The notes under the pieces were generated by a model that was not told the DNA's origin, searched no databases, and saw only the letters and a list, made by a program, of their open reading frames with translations. From Halorussus gelatinilyticus (GTDB lineage: Archaea > Halobacteriota > Halobacteria > Halobacteriales > Haladaptataceae), in NCBI RefSeq assembly GCF_023238445.1, contig NZ_CP096658.1:496001-560000 (forward strand): a stretch of 64,000 nucleotides of DNA. The letters are read 5' to 3'. The position numbers were made by a program, and so were the translations under genes. Of this stretch, positions 51,214-64,000 are shown piece after piece; positions within the stretch are counted from its first letter, which is position 1, and each line of letters starts with the position of its first letter.

Positions 51214-51807
51214 ATGCCAGACCGAAACCAAGTACCGCTAAACGTCCGCGTCACTCCCAAGAAAAAAGAGGAGTGGAAAACCTCGATCGATAACGACGAA
51301 ACTCTTGCAGGAGTCGTCCGTCGCGCAGTGGATCGGGAACTCAATAACGAGTACGTCCACGTGGACGCTGCTGACTATTTGGATGGTGGCGACGATATCG
51401 ATTTTAGCGAGGTGACTACCGATCTCGATTCACTCTCTGGGCAAGTTGAAGCGCTCCAGAGTGAGCTTGACGATGCGCTCACACCGGGGTCAATGCCACC
51501 GGAAGATCAGTTAAGCGAGGTGGCGATGCAAGCACTCGCGCACATCCCGCGGTATAGTGATCTCTCTGATGACGTGAGACGAGAGATCGGTGAGAGAGAT
51601 ATGGATCGACTACGAGGTGTTAAGATCTCGATTGAGGGTCGGCAAACACGAGTAGACGGGAGTGCGCAAGCAATCGCGTTCAAAATGGACGGTGACGAAA
51701 GCGAACTCATCGTTCGACAGGCCCTCATTTACCTAGAGAACCGGACGACAGAGAACGTCCGGAGTACGATTGCTGACGGGACTCGGAACTGGGTGAGAGG
51801 GGTATGA
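51214..51807 (+). CDS. Putative ribbon-helix-helix-type DNA-binding protein of the integrative element
   Basis: A 197-residue protein beginning with PLNVRVTPKKKEEWKTSIDNDETLAGVVRRAVDREL, which looks like a ribbon-helix-helix (CopG/Arc-type) strand and two helices, followed by an acidic coiled-coil stretch (residues 75-95) and a C-terminal domain of unknown type. Its stop overlaps the recombinase start (ATGA), so the two are translated together; it may regulate excision or act as the recombination directionality factor. GC is clearly lower than in the ribosomal region. Confidence 0.75.
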   Translation: MPDRNQVPLNVRVTPKKKEEWKTSIDNDETLAGVVRRAVDRELNNEYVHVDAADYLDGGDDIDFSEVTTDLDSLSGQVEALQSELDDALTPGSMPPEDQLSEVAMQALAHIPRYSDLSDDVRREIGERDMDRLRGVKISIEGRQTRVDGSAQAIAFKMDGDESELIVRQALIYLENRTTENVRSTIADGTRNWVRGV

Positions 51808-52919
51808 GGGACGACAAAGGCAGGTACGTAACACCAGAAAGCGAGAAGCTCAGCGAGGAGATGGAAGAGTTGCGTGGACGGTATCTCGACTCACTCACGT
51901 CACAGAAAACTGAAACAAGCAAAAGAACACGAACTACTCGGCGAAGGGAAGTCGGGTACTGGCTGCAGTTCTGTAGCGTTAACGGGATTGATCCGCTCGC
52001 CGCCGAAGAGTCCGATGTCCGCGGATATATCCAAACCATCAATGATCACGCAGATACGACGGTTCACTCCTACTTCACGTCAGTCCAATCGTTTTACTCA
52101 ATAATCATAAAAGACGCTGTAGATGACACCCTCGAACTTGATAACACCGGAGAGCACCCCTGCGATGGAATCAGCCTCAAGAAAGATTATGAAATCAGCA
52201 GGACATCGGAGTACAAACGACAGCATGTAATTACAGACGACCTTGAAAACGCCCGAGAGAACGAAGACGTCATCGCCCTCCGTCCGGACGCGGTTAAAGA
52301 GTTGTTTGACGCTGTGCCCGGAAAACGACGTGAAACTCAACTTCGGAACGAGGTGATTGTCCGTCTTTCATGGTATACCGGTGCTCGAAGCATTGAGCTG
52401 TCGAATATGCGGATTGGGAAAATTGACTGGGAGCGGTGTATGATAAACATCGAGTCCGCTAAAATAGATCCTCGGGAAAATCCCGGACTCGCCCGCCGGA
52501 ACGTTGTGTTTCCGAAAGAGTTCAAGTTGACACTCAGGCGGTGGTGTGAGCGAGTTCGACATTCCTTTTCAGGACAGGTCACACCGGAGGAGGGACACAT
52601 CCTCTGTACGACGCATAGTGACGTGATGCAGCCAGCGGATATCAACGACGTCATTAAACAAACTGCCCGGAACGCTGGGCTCCAACGGCCGCTGCGACCC
52701 GCGGATCCAGATTCGGAAGATGATGTCAAAGAGTGGTTCGTTACGTCACATCGCCTTCGCCGATCAGCGATTAGCCATTGGGTTAACGACATCAACACTA
52801 TCGATATCAACCAAGCTAGAATCTTAGCAGGCCACGCCCAACTCTCACAGACAATTGACTATGTCGAAGACGATAACGATTCACTCGCAGAAGATTACCA
52901 GGAAGGGGTGCAGGGGTAA
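51804..52919 (+). CDS. Tyrosine recombinase / phage-type integrase
   Basis: The 371-residue protein has a SAM-like N-terminal core-binding domain (about residues 40-110: VGYWLQFCSVNGIDPL, TVHSYFTSVQSFYSIII) and a catalytic domain with Arg in YTGARSIELSNM, HRLRR (His and Arg), GHAQLSQT and the nucleophile Tyr in TIDYVEDD. This completes the R-H-R-H-Y set. It should integrate and excise the element that begins after secY. Followed by 344 bp without a gene. Confidence 0.93.
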   Translation: MRDDKGRYVTPESEKLSEEMEELRGRYLDSLTSQKTETSKRTRTTRRREVGYWLQFCSVNGIDPLAAEESDVRGYIQTINDHADTTVHSYFTSVQSFYSIIIKDAVDDTLELDNTGEHPCDGISLKKDYEISRTSEYKRQHVITDDLENARENEDVIALRPDAVKELFDAVPGKRRETQLRNEVIVRLSWYTGARSIELSNMRIGKIDWERCMINIESAKIDPRENPGLARRNVVFPKEFKLTLRRWCERVRHSFSGQVTPEEGHILCTTHSDVMQPADINDVIKQTARNAGLQRPLRPADPDSEDDVKEWFVTSHRLRRSAISHWVNDINTIDINQARILAGHAQLSQTIDYVEDDNDSLAEDYQEGVQG

Positions 52920-53263
52920 CGTTATCGATACCCCGTCGGGTTTCCATCCAACAGTATCAAAAACACACCCCCTCATCGAAATTATCACCGGCCTCCAGTT
53001 CACTGTCGTTCTTGACCAGCCTCGCTTCAGCCAAAGCAAGGCGGCTCAACCGGGCACCTGTTCGTATCCTGCTGACATCCCGTCCCGTTTGTCCGATGCT
53101 TCCTCTTCCAGCCAAGTTCCTCTCCAACATCTGCTGGATCCTATGGAGAACGCATCACCGAGCGTGAACACCACTAGAAAGCTGGCAGCACTACACTACT
53201 TCGTGAAAGTCACCCAATTACAGGTATTCTCACGCCAGCCGTTGGTGAGTTACCTGGTCCCCA
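52920..53263. other. Gene-free stretch of 344 bp in the element
   Basis: Lies between the convergent recombinase and MCM genes. A 160-codon open frame crosses it but overlaps the coding ends of both neighbours and is Ser/Arg-rich without domain signals, so I do not call it. GC is about 52 percent, lower than the core. It may hold remnants of lost genes. Confidence 0.5.
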
Positions 53264-55303
53264 CTACGATTTCCGCAGTTTGCCTCTTGTCTCGTAGATC
53301 TTGCCGTTCTGTTTCAGCGAGTCGATGTCATGCCTAATCTTCTCCTCATCCATGTCGATGATCTCCGCGACCTCTTCGGCGGTCGTCCCGTCTTGGTCCT
53401 CAATGATGGCAAGCACCTGTTTTCGCCGGTCCCGCTGGCTCTTCGACTGCCCCGTCTCAACTACGTCCACATCGAACTGCCCGCTCTCGGGGTCGATGCC
53501 GACCTGCTCCATCGACTTCCGAACCAGCGTGAGGGCACGGTCCACGTCCTCTCGCCGAACTTCGTCGGAGAGACGCACCCGTGCAGACGCCTCAGCGAGG
53601 CGTTCGATGGCTTCTTCTTGTCGGTAGGTCACCGGCACTGGGTTGTCTTCTTCGTCGGCGTTGGCGAGACGGATCTTCAGGAATTCCTCACGGAGGTACT
53701 CTTGGGTCTCCTCATTCTCTGCCCGGATGTACGGCGTCACCTCGTCCTTCGCATAGGCGATGTACGCACGCAGCGTCTGGTGGGGGATATCCGGCTCGAT
53801 GCTTTTCCGCTCTTCCTCGGTGAGCTCCTTGCCGAGCTCCTTTTTTGCCTTCGCCCGCCGGGACCGCATCTGGTGGTTGACGACTCCTCGGTCAGTCTCC
53901 TTGTCGGGCGAGTCGGAGACCATGAACATCAGATCGAACCGCGACATCAGTGTCGGTCCGAGGTCAAGTTGTTCGGCAATCGGCTCGTAGTTATCGAACC
54001 GTCCGTATTTTGGGTTTCCCGCCGCTAGCATTGCGGTGCGCGCGTTCAGTGTCGCGTTGATTCCTGCTTTGTTTACCCGGACTTTCTGACTCTCTAGGGC
54101 GTCGTGGAGAGATGAAATGACGTTGTCGTTGACCTTATCGATCTCGTCGATACACGCGACGCCGCCGTCAGCGAGGACGAGAGCACCTGCTTCGAGGCCC
54201 CATTCGGCGTCGCCGAAGTCGTCGGCTACCGCCGCCGCGGTTAACCCTGCAGCCGTGGCTCCCTTTCCTGAGGCGTACGTTGAGCGCGGCGCGAGGTCAT
54301 TGGCTGCCTTCAGGAAGGTCGATTTTCCGCAGCCAGGGTCACCCATCAGGAGAAGGTGGGAGTCCCCGCGCGTCTGCCCGCCGCGGGACCACCCGCCGAA
54401 CAGTTGGAGCGCGATGGCGAGTTTCACAACCTCGTGTCCTTCGTGTCCCGGGTTGATCGATTGAACTAGCAGGTCGTACGGGTCACCATGCTCGCCGGCG
54501 GCAATGGCCTCTATCTCGTCTCGGTGTTCGGAGATGTCGATGTCGTCGTAGGAACTCTCCTCTCGGACGACTGCCTGCCCGTCTACGGTGGTGTCGAAGT
54601 CAAGCGACTGGTTACTCCCAGGTTCCTCGGTGTCGAGAATACCGGTGAGGGTGACGCGATCACCGGCGTCGAACGACTGAATGAGGTCGTCTTCAAGATG
54701 GACGTCGATGGTCTCGCCCTCACCACCTTTCGTGCGCTCGGGCGGCTGCTGAATCCGAGCGAACTGGTGGTCGGTCCACGTGCTGGCCGACGAGTCGGGA
54801 CGGAATGGACCCTGTCGTTCGCATCCCTGACACTCGTGCGGTTCATCAAGTTGGTCACCGGTCTGCAGGATATCCGTCTGGGTTCCGCAGCGCTGGCATT
54901 CGAAGGTGGCTTCGACGATGCGTGGCTTCACCGCGCTGACCTTCTGGACCTGGCCGCGAATCCCTAGCAGCTTCCCGATGTTCTCCTTACGTGGAACTTC
55001 CGCGACGTCGAGGACGATGTCGTCTGGTAGGTCGTGGATGCGGACGTGAGCGTCGGATAGACTGACGTCCACGGGCAGGTCGTACAGTCGAAGCGCCTCT
55101 TCGAAGTACTCCAGCATCTCTCGCGGATGCTCTTGGATGTCGTCCGCGAGATCGGGGTCGAATCGGAAGACGTCATCGTAGCGTACGTGGAGTGAGCGTT
55201 GCTCTTGCGGGTAGTGCTGAGCGAGCTGTGCGACTTCCTCCCGGTAGTAGTCCCGGAGGAATCCTATCAAACGTTCGGTGATATCTTGGTGTTCTGCTCT
55301 CAT
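53264..55303 (-). CDS. mcm: MCM replicative-type DNA helicase on a mobile element
   Basis: The protein (679 residues from ATG 55303; 686 from ATG 55324) has the whole archaeal MCM layout: N-terminal domain A, a zinc finger (FECQRCGTQTD ... HECQGC), OB fold, Walker A LMGDPGCGKSTFLKA, Walker B GGVACIDEIDKV, Arg finger LMSRFDLMF and a C-terminal winged helix (TTAEEVAEIIDMDEEKIRHDIDSLKQNG). I prefer 55303 because the core-genome MCM family begins close to the first helix. No intein is visible at the Walker A site. An element-borne MCM next to an integrase is a known haloarchaeal theme: self-replication or recruitment by the element. Confidence 0.95.
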   Translation of the reverse strand: MRAEHQDITERLIGFLRDYYREEVAQLAQHYPQEQRSLHVRYDDVFRFDPDLADDIQEHPREMLEYFEEALRLYDLPVDVSLSDAHVRIHDLPDDIVLDVAEVPRKENIGKLLGIRGQVQKVSAVKPRIVEATFECQRCGTQTDILQTGDQLDEPHECQGCERQGPFRPDSSASTWTDHQFARIQQPPERTKGGEGETIDVHLEDDLIQSFDAGDRVTLTGILDTEEPGSNQSLDFDTTVDGQAVVREESSYDDIDISEHRDEIEAIAAGEHGDPYDLLVQSINPGHEGHEVVKLAIALQLFGGWSRGGQTRGDSHLLLMGDPGCGKSTFLKAANDLAPRSTYASGKGATAAGLTAAAVADDFGDAEWGLEAGALVLADGGVACIDEIDKVNDNVISSLHDALESQKVRVNKAGINATLNARTAMLAAGNPKYGRFDNYEPIAEQLDLGPTLMSRFDLMFMVSDSPDKETDRGVVNHQMRSRRAKAKKELGKELTEEERKSIEPDIPHQTLRAYIAYAKDEVTPYIRAENEETQEYLREEFLKIRLANADEEDNPVPVTYRQEEAIERLAEASARVRLSDEVRREDVDRALTLVRKSMEQVGIDPESGQFDVDVVETGQSKSQRDRRKQVLAIIEDQDGTTAEEVAEIIDMDEEKIRHDIDSLKQNGKIYETRGKLRKS

Positions 55304-55517
55304 ATCGATTTGTTGGAGCTCCACAACACCCTTGCCGGCGTGTGGTTCCCGGACCGGAGCGAGCGGAGCGAGCGGTCAGCGAGCATACCATCAGCTAACC
55401 GACCTTTATTTACAACTGCCTCTACCGTACAACCACTACGGCCTCAGAGGGAATCGTCTGAGACCAACCCCGTCGGCGGGGGCTTCCCACCTCCGAGGTG
55501 TTGTGGGGCTCCCACAG

Positions 55518-56087
55518 TTACTCGCCTCCGTTCCTCCGACGGTGACCGACGACGCCGCCGGGGAGGTCGCCATTCTCCAGGTTCAACTTTAGCCGACTCT
55601 CCCCGCCGGAGTTGCTCTCGTACCAGAGGATGTCCGTTTTCCCGACGAGACGTGGTGCCTTCCGAAGGTCGTCATAGAACGTCGTGCGGTCGATATCGGG
55701 GTACTTCAGCGCCGCCTCAGCCTGTTCCTTGTTCAGCGAAGCCTTCGCATCCCGACCGCGCTCACGCTCTGTCTCAGCCGCCTTCTTCAGGTGTTGGATG
55801 AGTGTAATACGGCGTTGCTTCGCGGTCATCTCGTCGCTGCTTTCGACAAGAGACAGCAGGTCAGTGCGCGCGTCCAAGCGCTCAATCTCCGTTCGGAGGT
55901 TCTCGTTCTCCTGCCAGAGGTCTTCGACCTCGTCATGGAGCGCGTCGCGTTCCTCGCGGACATCGTCAAGTTCAGTTTCGAAAGACTCGATCCGTTTTGA
56001 GTGAGCCTCAAGCCGCGCCGCGATGGCTCGGAGTTTTGGAGTGTCGTCTCCGTCCAGAGACTCTCCGTTCTGCTGCTGACTGCTCAC
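55518..56087 (-). CDS. Coiled-coil protein with C-terminal helix-turn-helix-like segment
   Basis: A 189-residue protein: a coiled coil at about residues 25-80 (ERDALHDEVEDLWQENENLRTEIERL), then TAKQRRITLIQHLKKAAETE and a helical unit with YPDIDRTTFYDDLRKAPRLVG that resembles a DNA-binding helix-turn-helix. It lies upstream of the MCM gene on the same strand, 193 bp away, and is typical of proteins found beside replication genes in haloarchaeal plasmids and proviruses; role unproven. Confidence 0.75.
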   Translation of the reverse strand: MSSQQQNGESLDGDDTPKLRAIAARLEAHSKRIESFETELDDVREERDALHDEVEDLWQENENLRTEIERLDARTDLLSLVESSDEMTAKQRRITLIQHLKKAAETERERGRDAKASLNKEQAEAALKYPDIDRTTFYDDLRKAPRLVGKTDILWYESNSGGESRLKLNLENGDLPGGVVGHRRRNGGE

Positions 56088-56449
56088 ACCAAATTCCTCC
56101 GGCAGTTGGACATTTGATCGGCAGCGTCAGGGACGCTCTCACTGCTTCCGCTCATCGACAACCACCCGGTGGTGGATGATTCACCAATTCTATCTAGTCT
56201 CAGCGCATTCGTTGAGTCCAGTCGCATACTGTATTTTCCTCGTTGTGAAGCACAAGGGACCCAAAGGCGCGGGACAATCACTCCATCCCGACGTCGTTCC
56301 GGTTCTGGGTCCGTGGAATCGTGGCTACTTCCCGCTATGTTTTCACTACTTATAAAGTTTTACAGGAAACCTATCTCTCCCTATAGTTGGTATCCTGCTC
56401 TGGTAGAGACCACAATAACTAATACAGGTGGAGTATTGTAAGCTGTTAA
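56088..56449. other. Divergent regulatory gap of 362 bp
   Basis: Between the divergent coiled-coil gene and the winged-helix gene. It has a TTATAAAG element at 56350-56357 (plus strand) and AT-rich DNA just before 56450 that could be the proximal promoter, plus a small hairpin (56162-56174). A 90-codon open frame here has no protein-like features and is not called. Confidence 0.5.
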
Positions 56450-57085
56450 ATGGAGCTTTCAGATACTGACTGGGGGATCCTCAACCTCTGCAGCGACAAC
56501 CGCGAAACGCGCAAAAACATCGCCGCTGCTTTGGACAAGTCACCCAACTACATCTCGAAAGAACTCTCGAAGCTCAGCGAGATGGGACTTCTCAAACAAC
56601 CAGGTCCAGCCGAGAACTCCGGGATGCACGTCACGACGAAGAAAGGAGAATTTGTCCTTTCGAAACAGGAAAAATACGAACGCCGGCAGTCCGAACTGTT
56701 CGGGGAGCTTGTCAAGTCGGCTGCCGAACTGTCTTGTGAATTATCAGCAGAAGCCGACAAGGAAGTTACTCCGAGCGATATCGTGGTCGTGACCGAACAG
56801 GCGCATGACTTACTTCAGAAACTGGATAACAACAGCGGGATATCCCCACAAGAAGCGGCAGATCGAATTGGGATAAATCTCTACGCGACACAGGGAATCT
56901 TATACGAACTATATTTTTTCGATCTTCTGGATCAAGCAGTCACATCTGAGGGAGAAATCTATGATCTCACCGCCCGTGGTCGGCGACTTCTTGATCAGCC
57001 CGCTCAGACAACTGTGAAGGATGCGAATCGTACGTGGAACATAATTACGTCGAAAGACAAATCCGAACCATCCTTTGATAAGTGA
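56450..57085 (+). CDS. Two-domain winged-helix transcription regulator
   Basis: A 211-residue protein. Residues 1-65 form a winged helix (DWGILNLCSDNRETRKNIAAALDKSPNYISKELSKLSEMGLLKQPG pattern), a helical middle with a coiled-coil-like stretch follows (74-105), and a second winged helix is at about 127-190 (ISPQEAADRIGINLYATQGILYELYFFDLLDQ). It probably regulates element or neighbouring defence genes. The gene is AT-rich. No specific family was identified. Confidence 0.78.
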   Translation: MELSDTDWGILNLCSDNRETRKNIAAALDKSPNYISKELSKLSEMGLLKQPGPAENSGMHVTTKKGEFVLSKQEKYERRQSELFGELVKSAAELSCELSAEADKEVTPSDIVVVTEQAHDLLQKLDNNSGISPQEAADRIGINLYATQGILYELYFFDLLDQAVTSEGEIYDLTARGRRLLDQPAQTTVKDANRTWNIITSKDKSEPSFDK

Positions 57086-57358: not shown

Positions 57359-58525
57359 CTAGTTGTTAGAAGAACTGCAGGATCTACATCGAATTGAGCC
57401 TTTGATCGTATTCAGGGGGTTCTCTACGCTCAATACACTATCACACGATGAACACTGGACTGTTTCCGTAGTTCCGATCCCACTTCCATATCCGAGCGTC
57501 ACGGTTCGGGAAACTCCTTGCTCAGCCAGTTCGACATCGATCTCTCCCCGTTCGTACTCTACCTGTGTTACCGTCAGAGGAGTCACTCGAATATCCAGCG
57601 CATGCCGCTTCCGAATCTCTTCCTGTTTCTGGGGAAATCCCTGATCGCGCAGTTCCTGCAGAGCACTTAGTTCCGCATCCACCTCTTCATACTCAGCTTT
57701 TGCCTCTTTCCGTTTCTTCAGTGCCTCCACGCGATCGTCCTGATTACTGCCGTTGATCGTTTCACTCAGCTCATCGATCTTCGAGGACAGCTTGGAACGT
57801 TCCTCTTCCAACTCTTGGATCCGTTGTTGTTGCAGTTGCCGGTACTCTTCGACCTCTGCGTCCGCTGCTCTCGATGCCTCATTATGGACCTCATCAATTT
57901 TGTTCTGGATGCTCTGCATCAGCTGATCTTGGGCTGTGCCGAGAAGCGATCGTGCGTCTGATCCCGATAATGAGGACTCCGTGGTAGTGGGAGAACCGTT
58001 CGTGGGTATCGACGTCATTTGAAGAAACGTCTCCTCTAACGCCGGAAGTCTCTGTTCCGAGCGGTGGTCGATGGCGATGGCGCGAAGGAGCTCTTGTTGG
58101 TACTCACTGACGGTTTCGATACTCACCTCGAAGAGAACTACAATCGCTGTGCGGTCGTAATACGGAGTGAACTGGGCCTCCCTGACTTCGACGTCACCTT
58201 CTTTGATCCACTGTGGGATTTCCGCGTCGTCCCGATCGGCTTCTATCGATAGTTTCCCAGTAGGGTGGCGCTCAGTTGCCTCTCTGAGGATCCGCTGAAA
58301 GAACTCACTCTCGGGATGAAGAGACTCTTCAGTAGCATCTTCGTCTCTGTCTGCGCCACAAAGCAACGATAGGCTTCCCGCCGGCAATTCCGTATCCTCA
58401 TTGTCTGGGATCGTAACTTCCCAGGTATCCCCTCGTTTCTCGATGGTCCCACCGAGTGACTCTAAGTAGCGTTCGGCGAAGTCCTCAACGAGGGACTGCG
58501 TGACCGCGAGTGCTTCGTCAGTCAT
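57359..58525 (-). CDS. Coiled-coil protein with C-terminal zinc ribbon, partner of SNF2 helicase
   Basis: A 388-residue protein. N-terminal domain about 1-190 (ESLGGTIEKRGDTWEVTIPDNED, YYDRTAIVVLFEVSIETVSEYQQELLRAIAID), long coiled coil about 200-300 (EVEEYRQLQQQRIQELEEERSKLSSKIDEL), a beta domain (RVTPLTVTQVEYERGEIDVELA) and a final ribbon with VQCSSCDSVLSV and RCRSCSSSNN (two CxxC). The start at 58525 overlaps the SNF2 gene by 8 bp, so the two proteins are made together. I do not recognise the family. The open frame upstream of 58525 is not coding. Confidence 0.8.
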   Translation of the reverse strand: MTDEALAVTQSLVEDFAERYLESLGGTIEKRGDTWEVTIPDNEDTELPAGSLSLLCGADRDEDATEESLHPESEFFQRILREATERHPTGKLSIEADRDDAEIPQWIKEGDVEVREAQFTPYYDRTAIVVLFEVSIETVSEYQQELLRAIAIDHRSEQRLPALEETFLQMTSIPTNGSPTTTESSLSGSDARSLLGTAQDQLMQSIQNKIDEVHNEASRAADAEVEEYRQLQQQRIQELEEERSKLSSKIDELSETINGSNQDDRVEALKKRKEAKAEYEEVDAELSALQELRDQGFPQKQEEIRKRHALDIRVTPLTVTQVEYERGEIDVELAEQGVSRTVTLGYGSGIGTTETVQCSSCDSVLSVENPLNTIKGSIRCRSCSSSNN

Positions 58526-60272
58526 CGCCTTCCCCCAAGTCGAATCCTTCGAAGACGCCGTTGTTGAACTGCTCCAGTTTGTCAGCGAGCTCGCTCTGTT
58601 CTTGCAGATCGACGGCCATCGCTTCGAAGTCGTTCTCCAGATCAACCTCTGAATCAGCATTGACGAGTCGGTCGAAAATCTGGTCCTCGAAGCTTGTCCC
58701 TGACTCTTCTAACCGACTCAAGATCGAACTTAGCTCGCCCACACTTTGTTGGAACAAATCGATTTTGTGGTAGAGACGCTCCAGTACGTATTCTTCAACA
58801 GTATCCTTTAGCGCCATGTTGAAGATGAAGACATCCCGTTTCTGTCCAATCCGGTGTACACGTCCAATACGTTGTTCGACGCGCATCGGATTCCACGGCA
58901 AGTCTAAATTAACCAACATATTACAAAACTGTAAGTTTCGACCTTCGCTCATTGAGTCGGTTGAAACGAGGACCCCACCCTCCTCCTCGAAGTCCTCAAT
59001 AATCAGTTCCTTCTCGCTACTGGAGTGGCCACCGTGGAACGCGTGTACCGTGTACCCCTCCGCAGCGAGCCTATCGAGAATCTCCTGTTGAGTTGCTCGG
59101 AACTGCGTGAAGACGATGACTCGCCCCATCTCGACGTTGTCACGGGCTTCTTCGACAATGTCCAGAAGTCGTTCCTGTTTGGTGACCGTATCGATCTCAT
59201 CGATCAGATCTAAAATGGACTCCAGTTCGTCCGCGTGCGTGAGCTCCGACTGGTCGTAGAGTCGCTTCTCGATGGTCTTCTTGAGTGCGACCGGGCTGCT
59301 GACGACCTCCTTCTGCAAGAGCATCAGTACGAGCTTCTGCCCCTGGTCTTGGCTGTAGGCACCTTTCACATAGTCAGAAACCGCCTGATAGAGTTCGCGT
59401 TCCTTCGGGGTTGGATTGAACGTCCGTGTGTCGATCGTCCGGTCCGTGAAGTCAATATCCGTGTCCTCCCGTCGGTTTCGGATCATAACCTTGTTTAGGC
59501 GGTCCTGTAGTTCGTCTCGATTCACCAGCGTCTCTTGATTGCTGTTGACGAAGTACTGGTGGAAGACGTCGCGTGTGCCGAACAGTCCGGGTCGAAGTAG
59601 CGAGACGACGTTGTAGAGGTCGGTCAGCTCGTTCTGAATCGGCGTCGCCGTCAGGAAGAACGCGTAGTTGTAGGAGAGCCGGTCAATCAGGTCGTAACGG
59701 TCCGTCTCCTCGTTTTTGACGTAGTGGGCTTCGTCGAGGACCAGAACGTCCCAGTCGCGGTTGAGGACAGTCTGACGGTGTCGCTCGCTCTTCGCAGTGT
59801 CGATACTTGCGATGATGTAGTCGTGGGCGTCGAAGTCTTCGAACTCGTCGTCGTAGTTGCAGACGAAGTTGAGCCCGAACTTCTCACGGAGTTCGGCCTG
59901 CCACTGTTTCGCCAGTTGTGCAGGAGTGAGGATGAGGACGGACTCGTCCGTCTCTCGGAAGTGCATCTCCTTGAGAATCATCCCGACCTCGATGGTCTTT
60001 CCGAGGCCGACTTCGTCCGCGAGAAGGGCTTTCCCGTCCATCTCGAAGAGGGCCCGATAGGCGGCGTCCACCTGATGTTCGAGTAGCTTGACGGAGTTTT
60101 CGTCTAGTTCTTTCAGCGACCGAAGTTCGGAGTCCGGCTGGCCCGCCTGGAGACGAACGGCTTGGATGGTTTGTAAATGATCCTCCTCTGCACCATCTCC
60201 AGACAACGAATCGGGAATATCGTCCGCAGACTCGTGTGTGACCTCAACATCAACGAGGTCGTAGCTTCCCAT
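58518..60272 (-). CDS. SNF2/HepA-type superfamily 2 helicase
   Basis: The 584-residue protein has the SNF2 motor: Walker A LLADEVGLGKTIEVGMIL, motif Ia LILTPAQLAKQW, DEAH-box VLVLDEAHYVKNEETDRY, LTATPIQNELTDLYN, and in lobe 2 VIVFTQFRATQQEIL, LVSTDSMSEGRNLQF and the RIGRVHRIGQ motif VI. No nuclease or methylase domain is fused. ATG 60272 is the family-like start (MGSYDLVDVEVTH). It is divergent from the DUF499 ATPase, start codons 142 bp apart, implying shared control. Confidence 0.92.
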   Translation of the reverse strand: MGSYDLVDVEVTHESADDIPDSLSGDGAEEDHLQTIQAVRLQAGQPDSELRSLKELDENSVKLLEHQVDAAYRALFEMDGKALLADEVGLGKTIEVGMILKEMHFRETDESVLILTPAQLAKQWQAELREKFGLNFVCNYDDEFEDFDAHDYIIASIDTAKSERHRQTVLNRDWDVLVLDEAHYVKNEETDRYDLIDRLSYNYAFFLTATPIQNELTDLYNVVSLLRPGLFGTRDVFHQYFVNSNQETLVNRDELQDRLNKVMIRNRREDTDIDFTDRTIDTRTFNPTPKERELYQAVSDYVKGAYSQDQGQKLVLMLLQKEVVSSPVALKKTIEKRLYDQSELTHADELESILDLIDEIDTVTKQERLLDIVEEARDNVEMGRVIVFTQFRATQQEILDRLAAEGYTVHAFHGGHSSSEKELIIEDFEEEGGVLVSTDSMSEGRNLQFCNMLVNLDLPWNPMRVEQRIGRVHRIGQKRDVFIFNMALKDTVEEYVLERLYHKIDLFQQSVGELSSILSRLEESGTSFEDQIFDRLVNADSEVDLENDFEAMAVDLQEQSELADKLEQFNNGVFEGFDLGEGDD

Positions 60273-60414
60273 AGTTTCGTAGAGACAGGTTCGCGTCAAA
60301 TACGTTTGGTGACCGGAAAACACTGGACGGTCCGTCTGCTTGGCTCCGAGGGAGGAGGTATTCGCAAGACCATAGTGTTTATTGGGTGGCCAAGAGGTGT
60401 GTTTAAGTATCAAG

Positions 60415-63400
60415 ATGGCACAGTCAGGATCCCTGTCGAATACCCTCGAAGACACGGTGACCCTCAGTCGTGAGCTTCGAGAAGAGGGGCAAATTGACGG
60501 TCAGGTAAAGCTCTACAACGTCGATGACGATGAGGAGTTCGAGTCAGACGCGGAACTCTTCTTCGAGCGAACCCTGATGACCCAGGGGCTCCGTGAGGCG
60601 CTTTCGATTCTCCGCGATTCGCTCACGGGCGATGACCCGCGCGGGACGCACATCCTCTACGGTCCGTACGGCAGTGGGAAGTCCCACCAGATGGTGGCGC
60701 TGTACCACTGCTTCGACGACCCCGACGCAGCAGGTACGTGGGCAAGCGACTCGGTCGAAGGGTTCGAGACGGCCCTCCCGGAATCAGCGACGCCGATTAC
60801 GGTCGCCATGCAGAACGAGCAGTACGAGTACCTCTGGGAGCCGTTCTTCGAAGCGCTTGATTACGACCCTGGAACGTACAGCTCGGGCGGATATCCCGAC
60901 ATGCAGACGATTCAGGAGGCCGTCGGCGACGACACGGTCGCGTTCTTCGTGGACGAACTCGAAGACTGGTTCGACACACTCCAGGGCGACCGCAAGAGCG
61001 CAAACAAAGCCTTCCTCCAGTCGCTCCTCGAATCGACCGCGCTCTCGGATCTCGAACTATACACCATCGTCTCCGTCCTGCGTGAGGGCTCCGAGGTCCA
61101 CGACATCCTGAATCGGGAACAGGCGGTCGAGGTCAACATGAACAATCAAGTGGACAAACGCGAGGTCCTGCGTCACCGCCTGATCGATTCGGTTAACGAG
61201 AACGCTGCCCGGGAGATCGTCAATGGGTACTTCGATGCCTACGACCAATCAGATCACGTCTCCATTCCCGATGATCTGCTGTCGGAGATGCACGATCTGT
61301 ATCCGTTCCACCCTGTGCTTCTGGACGCGCTTGAGACGCGGTACTACGCTGACGAGGATAACCAGAACACGCGAGGGATGATCTACCTCTTCTCGAAGGT
61401 TCTCCTGGAGATGCAGGATCAGACGGATCTGATCACGCACGGTGATATCGATGCTATCGAGTTCGAGGACGAGTTGGCGAAGATCAACTACGAGCGACTG
61501 AACGCGGCGACGGGCGACATCAAAAGCCGCATCGATGAAGACGATGTTCCCCACGGCCGACGTATTCTGAACACGATCCTCCTGTACTCGCTGAAGCCGA
61601 GCGAGGGCGAGGGTGCAGAGGTTTCGGAGATCGTCATGGGTGCCTACCAGACTGGCGATCTCGTCTCCGACGTTGTCCTCAATCTCGAACGTCTCCACGG
61701 TGTCGCGTGGCATCTCCACAAGCTGAACGGGAAGTACGCGATCCGCGACCGGCAGAACCCGAACGCGCTCATCCGGAACGCGGCCGTGGACGTCTCCGAG
61801 ACGTCGGCGAAGGCTGAAGTCGCGGACTTCATCACCGATATCTTCGGGTCGAACGCACACCCGGTCGGATTCCGGACGAACGATATGCGGGACATCCCAG
61901 ACGACCGCGAGGTCAAGGTCGTCGTGAAGGACGACCAGTGGACGAACGAGGAGGTCGAGAAGGTCATCACGAACGACGGTCGTGGCCGCGAGTGGCGTAA
62001 CACGCTCGTGTTCGTCCAACCCTCGGGCGACAAAGCCATCGAGTCGGGGACACGGTATATCGACAAAGCACGGTACATCGAGGGCGCACGGCAGGTCCTC
62101 GCCGACGAATCTCTCGATGACGAAATCCGGACGTCGATCAAGGGTATGCGGGAGCAGGAGGAGAACGAACTCCGCGAAGAACTCCAGCTCCTGTACGGTG
62201 AGGTGCTTGACGGGAACGACCTGCTCAACGACTGGGGACAGATGACGCCGATGGAACTCGACGTCTACGTTCACGACGAGGCAGAGCTGAATGCGTCGAA
62301 CATCGCGGACTCAGCATCTGCTGATCCGTTTGACCTCCAGTCGGACGTCTGGGCTATCGCTGAGGACCTTCTGGAGCGACGCGGAGAAATTTCGGTCGAG
62401 GATATCTACGAGCAGTTCCTCCGCGACCCGGAGCTACCGATCCCCGGCAGTGCGAACGACGTGCTGAATGCGACGGTGAAAGCGCTCTCGGACAAACCGG
62501 TGCTCGCCCGTGACACTGGTGGGTTCCGCGACGATCTCTCCGGCAGTTCGCTGGACACCGTCCTCGTCCAGCAAGACGATGTGGACGTATGGGGCGTCGA
62601 TGACGTCGAACAGGAACTGCGTCAACGGTTCGGGAGCGGAACGACCGCGCTCGATATCGGTGACTTTGAACTGGAGCTCGTCGAAGACGGCGAGATCTGG
62701 ATCGACGGCGACAGTCACGACGTCGTGATGCGGGCCATCGGTCGGCTCGCTCGTGAGGAGCAGTACGTCATTGTCAAAGGGAACGAGATCCTCGATAAAC
62801 CACAGTCCGACGCGACGGTCCGAGACGTCGGCGGCGCGGAGGTCGTCGGTGCGTCGTCCCTCGTAGACCGCATCGAGACGCATATCGACGACGACGGCTA
62901 TGCGAACCTCGACACGATCATCGGCGAAATCCGTGCCGAGGAGTCGGTGTTCCTCCCGCCGGACGAGACCGAGTCCGTCGCCCGCGAGGCGGTCAACGAA
63001 TTCCTCGTAGACGACTACGTCCTGGAAGCCGGCGGTCGGTACCTCGGATCGCTGGGAGACCGTGACCCGACGACGGTAAAGATCGTCCCGACCGTTCCCG
63101 AACGGATCGGCGACCAGATCCTGGAGTACATCGAGGACCTGGACCCGGGTGACCAGTTCACGGTGAACAAGGTCACGGATCGGTTCGACAGCAGTGTTAC
63201 CGAGTACATGGTGCGGACGTACCTGCTGGAGAACATTGGAAAGGACGAAGAACCCGAGTACGTCGTCAACACGACCGGCTCGGAGAAAGCCTCCGACTGG
63301 GTCCCTGGGTACCCGTTCCGGAAGGCAGACACGGAGATTCCCACGTGGCGCTTCGAGTACAACGGCGACGACGTTGCCGCGATGCGGAGCAAGTGGCGGA

Positions 63401-63621
63401 ACAACCACCAGACAGGAAGTGTCGATTACGGCGACGTCACATTCATGTTACCAGACCGGGAGGGTGTTCCCGGCGCTCTTCAGGGGACCGCCGACGTTGA
63501 GCGGACGCAAGTCAGCCTGACGCTGCGATCCGGCCAGGACTACACGAAGGTTCAGGACCTGTTCGAGCGGATGCCCGAGGAGGCGTCAAGCCTGAAGATC
63601 GAGATCACCTTCCAGAAGTAG
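60415..63621 (+). CDS. DUF499 family AAA+ ATPase (COG1483-like), defence-island type
   Basis: A 1068-residue protein. Residues 1-75 precede a clear P-loop GPYGSGKSH (83-91) and a Walker B FFVDELEDW (with Asp180-Glu181), then an ATPase lid-like region (YPFHPVLLDALETRYY) and long C-terminal alpha/beta domains to the end (DVTFMLPDREGVPGALQGTADVERTQVSLTL). This matches the DUF499 family, found next to DUF1156 DNA methylases and SNF2 helicases in prokaryotic defence islands. Function is unproven; probably an ATP-driven sensor or loader on DNA. An alternative Met lies 11 codons upstream (60382) but has no TATA spacing. Confidence 0.85.
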   Translation: MAQSGSLSNTLEDTVTLSRELREEGQIDGQVKLYNVDDDEEFESDAELFFERTLMTQGLREALSILRDSLTGDDPRGTHILYGPYGSGKSHQMVALYHCFDDPDAAGTWASDSVEGFETALPESATPITVAMQNEQYEYLWEPFFEALDYDPGTYSSGGYPDMQTIQEAVGDDTVAFFVDELEDWFDTLQGDRKSANKAFLQSLLESTALSDLELYTIVSVLREGSEVHDILNREQAVEVNMNNQVDKREVLRHRLIDSVNENAAREIVNGYFDAYDQSDHVSIPDDLLSEMHDLYPFHPVLLDALETRYYADEDNQNTRGMIYLFSKVLLEMQDQTDLITHGDIDAIEFEDELAKINYERLNAATGDIKSRIDEDDVPHGRRILNTILLYSLKPSEGEGAEVSEIVMGAYQTGDLVSDVVLNLERLHGVAWHLHKLNGKYAIRDRQNPNALIRNAAVDVSETSAKAEVADFITDIFGSNAHPVGFRTNDMRDIPDDREVKVVVKDDQWTNEEVEKVITNDGRGREWRNTLVFVQPSGDKAIESGTRYIDKARYIEGARQVLADESLDDEIRTSIKGMREQEENELREELQLLYGEVLDGNDLLNDWGQMTPMELDVYVHDEAELNASNIADSASADPFDLQSDVWAIAEDLLERRGEISVEDIYEQFLRDPELPIPGSANDVLNATVKALSDKPVLARDTGGFRDDLSGSSLDTVLVQQDDVDVWGVDDVEQELRQRFGSGTTALDIGDFELELVEDGEIWIDGDSHDVVMRAIGRLAREEQYVIVKGNEILDKPQSDATVRDVGGAEVVGASSLVDRIETHIDDDGYANLDTIIGEIRAEESVFLPPDETESVAREAVNEFLVDDYVLEAGGRYLGSLGDRDPTTVKIVPTVPERIGDQILEYIEDLDPGDQFTVNKVTDRFDSSVTEYMVRTYLLENIGKDEEPEYVVNTTGSEKASDWVPGYPFRKADTEIPTWRFEYNGDDVAAMRSKWRNNHQTGSVDYGDVTFMLPDREGVPGALQGTADVERTQVSLTLRSGQDYTKVQDLFERMPEEASSLKIEITFQK

Positions 63622-63928: not shown

Positions 63929-64000
63929 CTATCTGTCCCAGTACTCTGAACCCGGTTCGGGCCAGACCTCACTCGCTTGCTTTGCGAGCCACTCGCCACG
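63929..64000 (-). CDS. C-terminal end of a gene cut by the window edge
   Basis: A 23-codon open end (GEWLAKQASEVWPEPGSEYWDR, then TAG) continues past base 64000 with protein-like composition and helical amphipathic character. It lies 83 bp upstream of the 70-aa gene on the same strand. Identity cannot be told. Confidence 0.4.
   Translation of the reverse strand, partial: RGEWLAKQASEVWPEPGSEYWDR

What the first reader, a model, noticed from the sequence alone, without database searches (positions are those of the whole stretch)
57359..63621. Divergent module: zinc-ribbon coiled-coil + SNF2 helicase versus DUF499 ATPase, candidate undescribed defence system
Seen: three genes, helicase and coiled-coil protein overlapping by 8 bp, and a 1068-aa AAA+ ATPase diverging from them across 142 bp. 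Known: DUF499 (COG1483) ATPases and SNF2 helicases recur with DUF1156 (COG1743) DNA methylases in defence islands. No methylase is in the window next to them. Either it is in the neighbouring sequence or this is a methylase-free variant built from an ATPase, a helicase and a coiled-coil zinc-ribbon protein.
Basis: partly seen in the sequence, partly recalled or inferred. Interest (0 to 1): 0.85.

Follow-up and report, generated by a model that had tools for sequence, protein, structure and literature searches.

The report
Haloarchaeal DUF499 restriction system, split helicase

Summary
The three genes are real and placed as described. The "methylase-free variant" is wrong: the window ends just before the methylase. 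A DUF1156 (COG1743-type) N6-adenine MTase lies at genome C1:562623-565298 (window-equivalent 66623-69298), behind a GmrSD gene. The core is four genes: split SNF2 helicase (HEL + CCZ), DUF499 ATPase, MTase. In 292 haloarchaeal genomes, 47 of 50 standalone CCZ genes lie within 25 kb of this DUF499 clade. The "coiled-coil zinc-ribbon" protein matches by profile the C-terminal half of RapA/BrxHII/HmaA-type helicases, so it is mainly a detached helicase domain. The module belongs with the DUF499-centred BREX-related (BR)/Hma systems but fails a tested defining feature of each subtype (no fused REase, no HKD fusion, no PglZ). ATPase and MTase each form their own clade, nearest PglZ-bearing loci (17 of 17 with PglZ; none of the CCZ loci). 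The slot between ATPase and MTase holds exchangeable defence genes. The MTase's central region varies independently of helicase and ATPase, so specificity probably sits there. Best reading: R-M-like antiviral defence, a haloarchaeal variant of a known kind. Defence activity itself is untested.

The parts
57359..58525 (-). CCZ: 388-aa protein: N-terminal alpha+beta domain, long helical hairpin, beta-strands and a C-terminal 4-Cys zinc ribbon; counterpart of the C-terminal half of RapA/BrxHII/HmaA-type helicases
   Evidence: conserved residues; model pLDDT 84.9; profile match to helicase tails
58518..60272 (-). HEL: 584-aa SNF2 helicase core without Tudor domain, nuclease or C-terminal domains
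   Evidence: (closest solved structure RapA, 2.7e-39)
60415..63621 (+). [quoted passage not shown]
63929..64000 (-). 3' end of a GmrSD (DUF262/DUF1524) type IV restriction gene (612 aa) in the exchangeable slot; the gene runs on to window-equivalent 65767. Beyond it, outside the window: DUF1156 MTase at 66623-69298 (+), o145 at 70240-70677 (+), McrC/McrB-like pair at 71376-74359 (-) (L003:p = window-equivalent 64000+p)
   Evidence: GmrSD; MTase (HmaB 1.8e-32; DUF1156 2.1e-7; DPFMGGGT, DPPY); o145; McrBC

Best explanation
It is a restriction-modification-like antiviral system of the DUF499-centred BREX-related (BR)/Hma class, in a haloarchaeal variant. Inferred mechanism: the DUF1156 MTase methylates adenines at a site set by its central region and so marks host DNA. 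The same MTase, with the ORC/Cdc6-like DUF499 ATPase as loader and scaffold, finds unmodified foreign DNA and recruits the SNF2 motor, which is made of two proteins: the core (HEL) and its detached C-terminal half (CCZ). The motor translocates and stalls foreign replication or delivers the DNA to a nuclease. The core has no recognisable nuclease, so cutting, if it happens, would come from exchangeable neighbours (GmrSD, HNH, McrBC, Mrr and others). Shown here: gene content, co-conservation, homology of CCZ to helicase tails, clade structure, independent variation of the methylase's central region, variable slot. Inferred: defence activity, complex formation, order of steps, source of nuclease activity.
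For: MTase found next door. The same genes recur in about 45 haloarchaeal genomes of many genera. CCZ profile against tails of HmaA-type and BREX-type helicases: probability 94-97%, P 1e-7 to 6e-12; among 18 unrelated control profiles none is below P 0.019. CCZ distances track HEL distances (Spearman 0.91). The ATPase model resembles ORC, with BrxC among the weaker hits. The MTase central region (about residues 331-530) differs by about 50% even where HEL and ATPase are 99% identical, with no correlation to either (rho -0.06 and -0.04; DNA mosaic). Slot contents: GmrSD, HNH-MTaX1, DUF3644, DUF5677, PHP-AAA, Fic, nucleotidyltransferase. The region lies in a low-GC stretch beside an integrase.
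Against: No experiment here. Foldseek of the CCZ model gave no hit at E<=0.001 and RapA was not among the 50 listed. The CCZ part after the coil, with the zinc ribbon, did not match helicase tails. The N-domain alone matches more weakly (P 1e-4 to 3e-5). The BR literature says that a BR locus always encodes an endonuclease or PglZ; here no single nuclease is constant.
Confidence: 0.78

Rival explanations
1. Methylase-free system of ATPase, helicase and coiled-coil protein: defence without self-marking.
For: No methylase between 57359 and 64000 in the window.
Against: A DUF1156 MTase follows in the same genome and is found in most relatives where enough flank was read; ATPases and MTases of these loci each form one clade.
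Confidence: 0.02
2. An ordinary Type-1 BR/Hma system whose helicase was merely split and lost its nuclease, already included in the published survey among Type-1 loci with separate nucleases.
For: Same three protein families; the survey reports the helicase-nuclease fusion in 79% of Type-1 taxa, with other nucleases nearby in the rest (PMC12839542).
Against: The ATPase and MTase lie far from the haloarchaeal Type-1-like loci in the trees and nearest the PglZ-bearing loci; no N-terminal room for a Tudor domain; the survey's main text has no mention of split helicases or zinc ribbons. Its supplementary lists could not be read.
Confidence: 0.2
3. A sub-reading of the best explanation: the restriction step needs no nuclease. 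The motor with CCZ blocks replication or transcription of unmodified DNA, as BREX is described to stop phage DNA replication.
For: No conserved nuclease in the core; slot empty in L014, L059, L076, L080, where ATPase and MTase genes overlap or abut; HEL closest to RapA, an RNA-polymerase-associated motor.
Against: Nuclease genes are usually near, though of changing kinds.
Confidence: 0.35
4. The module is a host chromatin, replication or repair machine rather than defence (ORC-like ATPase, SNF2 motor).
For: ORC/Cdc6 and RapA similarity.
Against: Patchy (about 16% of sampled haloarchaeal genomes), on a low-GC stretch beside an integrase, among GmrSD and McrBC, with an MTase whose central region is shuffled.
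Confidence: 0.07

Closest known systems
DUF499-centred BREX-related (BR) systems, Type 3 (PMC12839542)
   Same: DUF499 ATPase and DUF1156 MTase; ATPase and MTase clades here are nearest to haloarchaeal DUF499-PglZ-MTase loci; helicase without fused nuclease
   Different: No PglZ found (iSTAND not tested); helicase split into HEL and CCZ; ATPase divergent from the helicase; extra zinc ribbon
Type-1 BR / Hma systems (PMC8565338, PMC12839542; COG1743-DUF499-SWI2/SNF2-nuclease operon of PMC7641849)
   Same: SNF2 helicase, N6-MTase, DUF499 ATPase; PADLOC HmaA/B/C all match
   Different: Helicase lacks Tudor and REase domains; ATPase and MTase far away in the trees
BREX Type 3 (BrxC, BrxXI, BrxHII)
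   Same: Homologous ATPase, MTase and RapA-like helicase; CCZ matches the tail of the BREX-type helicase set
   Different: No PglZ found; DUF499 rather than DUF6079 ATPase; helicase in two proteins
DISARM (DrmD helicase)
   Same: HEL's best PADLOC match is DrmD, 1e-83
   Different: No DrmA, DrmB or DrmC seen among the annotated neighbours; the MTase matches HmaB best

Membership tests
DUF499-centred BR / Hma class | DUF499 AAA+ ATPase | tested here: met
   Pfam 4.3e-10 over cut-off; HmaC 2.1e-18
DUF499-centred BR / Hma class | DUF1156 N6-adenine MTase in the locus | tested here: met
   DPPY and DPFMGGGT motifs
DUF499-centred BR / Hma class | Swi2/Snf2 helicase of RapA-like architecture | tested here: met
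   Core in HEL; C-terminal half as separate CCZ, so met by two proteins, not one
BR Type 1 | Tudor domain and (in 79% of taxa) C-terminal PD-(D/E)XK nuclease fused to the helicase | tested here: not met
   584-aa HEL with Walker A at residue 89 and only helicase domains; no nuclease family above cut-off in CCZ
BR Type 2 | HKD nuclease-helicase fusion (83% of taxa) | tested here: not met
   HEL has no PLD/HKD domain
BR Type 2 | standalone DUF3780 gene | tested here: inconclusive
   No hit in own genome, but the control search rang nowhere
BR Type 3 | standalone PglZ in the locus | tested here: not met
   No PF08665 hit in own genome; a home-made profile found PglZ in 17/17 other DUF499 loci and in no CCZ locus (loci read over limited flanks)
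BR Type 3 | iSTAND component (82% of taxa) | not tested
   Fast-evolving; no profile available
RapA/BrxHII C-terminal domains (for CCZ) | alpha+beta domain followed by long coiled-coil helices, placed after the SNF2 core | tested here: met
   Profile match incl. the non-coil N-domain, predicted fold, gene order after HEL; the structure search did not confirm it
Active antiviral defence system | reduces virus infection or plasmid entry | not testable with these tools
   needs an experiment

The most novel reading that the evidence does not exclude
A fourth BR subtype of haloarchaea in which PglZ is replaced by a two-protein RapA-like motor (HEL + CCZ) with no nuclease of its own: recognition sits in the shuffled MTase centre and the killing step is either nuclease-free blockage or outsourced to exchangeable slot nucleases.
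Probability: 0.4. Interest if true: 0.6.

Novelty: new variant of a known kind. Interest (0 to 1): 0.47.

Why it matters
It shows that the DUF499/BREX-related machinery can lack both the fused nuclease and PglZ, which bears directly on how BREX-like systems restrict DNA. It is found only in haloarchaea in the samples searched, some of which can be manipulated genetically, so the question "does the motor alone restrict?" is testable. The independently varying methylase centre against a near-constant ATPase and helicase suggests that one specificity subunit serves modification and restriction. Practically, a scan that stopped at the window edge would have misfiled it as methylase-free.

Tried and rejected
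Methylase-free reading: rejected. CCZ as an independent sensor that co-varies with target specificity: rejected; CCZ follows HEL (rho 0.91), not the MTase centre (rho -0.06; partial Mantel r 0.05, p 0.22). Active nuclease in CCZ: the predicted N-domain order (alpha-beta-beta-beta-alpha-beta) recalls the degenerate REase described for BrxHII, but no conserved D...(D/E)xK residues appear among the invariant columns of the 35-row alignment. PDB sequence search with CCZ gave only weak, mostly coiled-coil matches. Foldseek of CCZ was dominated by coiled-coil proteins and uninformative. The ATPase model is poor (pLDDT 55, shallow alignment), so its ORC and BrxC matches are indicative only. Att-site search: only a 16-bp chance-like repeat; no tRNA nearby. 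PMC11232893 (test of a nuclease-fused Snf2 helicase) is not held. DUF3780 searches had no working control.

Full report
Observation. The three genes are present exactly as described: CCZ 57359-58525 (-), HEL 58518-60272 (-), 8-bp overlap, then 142 bp, then the DUF499 ATPase 60415-63621 (+). Pfam assigns SNF2 and Helicase_C to HEL and DUF499 to the ATPase. The catalytic motifs of both NTPases are intact.

The missing methylase. The window is C1:496001-560000 of a one-contig genome. The next 20 kb (L003) hold the rest of a GmrSD gene (window 63929 to window-equivalent 65767) and then a DUF1156 MTase at window-equivalent 66623-69298 (Pfam DUF1156 2.1e-7; PADLOC HmaB 1.8e-32), followed by o182, o145 and a McrBC-like pair. 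The methylase-free reading is therefore refuted.

Conservation. A scan with CCZ found 11 haloarchaeal loci, and most carry the same set: CCZ-HEL diverging from the ATPase, and the MTase beyond. A profile search of 292 haloarchaeal genomes (one per species) gave 50 standalone CCZ genes. Of these, 47 lie within 25 kb of a gene of this ATPase clade; 45 genomes have both, out of 47 and 46. In a sample of 393 genomes of the phylum, CCZ was found only in the same order. Gene order varies: in one group the MTase sits beside or near HEL and the ATPase lies further off (several of L055-L065).

What CCZ is. The predicted fold is an alpha+beta N-domain, a long helical hairpin, paired strands and a small Cys4 ribbon. 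Profile-profile comparison with the tails of HmaA-type and BREX-type helicases gave probability 97% and, with standalone CCZ only, 94-95% (P 1e-7 and 2e-8), against P>=0.019 for all 18 unrelated control profiles. The N-domain without the coil still matched (P 3e-5 and 1e-4). The part after the coil did not. HEL's closest solved relative is RapA. For BrxHII, a RapA-like order of SNF2 core, degenerate REase-like domain and coiled-coil domain is described in PMC12839542. I conclude that the helicase is split into two genes and that CCZ carries its C-terminal half plus a zinc ribbon. The structure search neither confirmed nor denied this.

Which system. PMC12839542 defines DUF499-centred BREX-related systems: Type 1 (Tudor-SNF2-REase helicase), Type 2 (HKD helicase, DUF3780), Type 3 (PglZ, iSTAND). 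PMC8565338 named the helicase-methylase-ATPase trio Hma, and PMC7641849 and PMC3710099 noted it in other surveys. The present locus has the three families but neither the Type-1 helicase architecture nor an HKD fusion nor PglZ. Seventeen other haloarchaeal DUF499-MTase loci (L116-L132) all carry a standalone PglZ between ATPase and MTase, or overlapping the ATPase frame in L118, and no HEL-type helicase in the 20 kb read (apart from a fragment at the edge of L132); no CCZ locus carries PglZ (PADLOC PglZ 5e-6). In trees, the CCZ-type ATPases and MTases each form one clade (100/100), nearest to the PglZ-bearing loci and far from Type-1-like loci; several long branches meet, so the exact branching order is unsure.

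Clues to mechanism. Among 25 complete loci the mean amino-acid distance is 0.14 for HEL and 0.15 for the ATPase, 0.47 for CCZ and 0.50 for the MTase's central 200 residues, against 0.13 for the MTase C-terminus. CCZ distances follow HEL (rho 0.91); the MTase centre follows neither HEL, ATPase nor CCZ (rho about 0). At the DNA level the window and L005 are about 98% alike over HEL but 58-64% in the MTase centre. The simplest inference is that the exchanged MTase centre sets the sequence read for both modification and restriction, while motor and ATPase are generic. The slot between ATPase and MTase contains GmrSD, HNH-MTaX1, DUF3644, DUF5677, PHP-AAA, Fic or nucleotidyltransferase genes, or nothing. 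No nuclease is fixed, which leaves a nuclease-free block or borrowed nucleases as the restriction step.

Verdict. A new variant of a known kind of defence system. Defence activity, complex formation and mechanism are inferred, not shown. I could not read the survey's supplementary lists, so part of this clade may already be catalogued there.

Noticed in passing
L046-L053 (e.g. L047:3956-13931): A second conserved haloarchaeal set: PbeA-like SF2 helicase, a 280-340-aa protein, a HEL-type SNF2 helicase, a CCZ domain fused to a 630-785-residue Cys-rich array (98-124 Cys, 31-41 CxxC), an Mrr-like REase and a 298-aa protein; no DUF499 or DUF1156 gene found in the fetched 20 kb. I know of no description of it.
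   Followed up: partly
L116-L132: DUF499 - standalone PglZ - DUF1156 MTase loci without a detectable complete SNF2 helicase in the 20 kb read: a reduced Type-3-like BR system.
   Followed up: partly
L003:6240-6677 (window-equivalent 70240-70677): o145 family (about 127 aa, no Pfam or PADLOC match) downstream of the MTase in 16 CCZ-type and 8 PglZ-type loci: possible unrecognised BR component.
   Followed up: partly
window 51214-57085: Start of a low-GC stretch right after SecY: 197-aa protein, tyrosine integrase, MCM helicase, coiled-coil and HTH genes; the same series at 95-98% identity borders CCZ in L009 (Haloarchaeobius), which suggests a mobile island.
   Followed up: partly
L003:7376-10359 (window-equivalent 71376-74359): McrBC-like pair; the McrC family is found beyond the MTase in about ten relatives.
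   Followed up: partly
L133-L135: Type-1-like BR loci; in L133 a DUF7680 gene lies between DUF499 and MTase.
   Followed up: no
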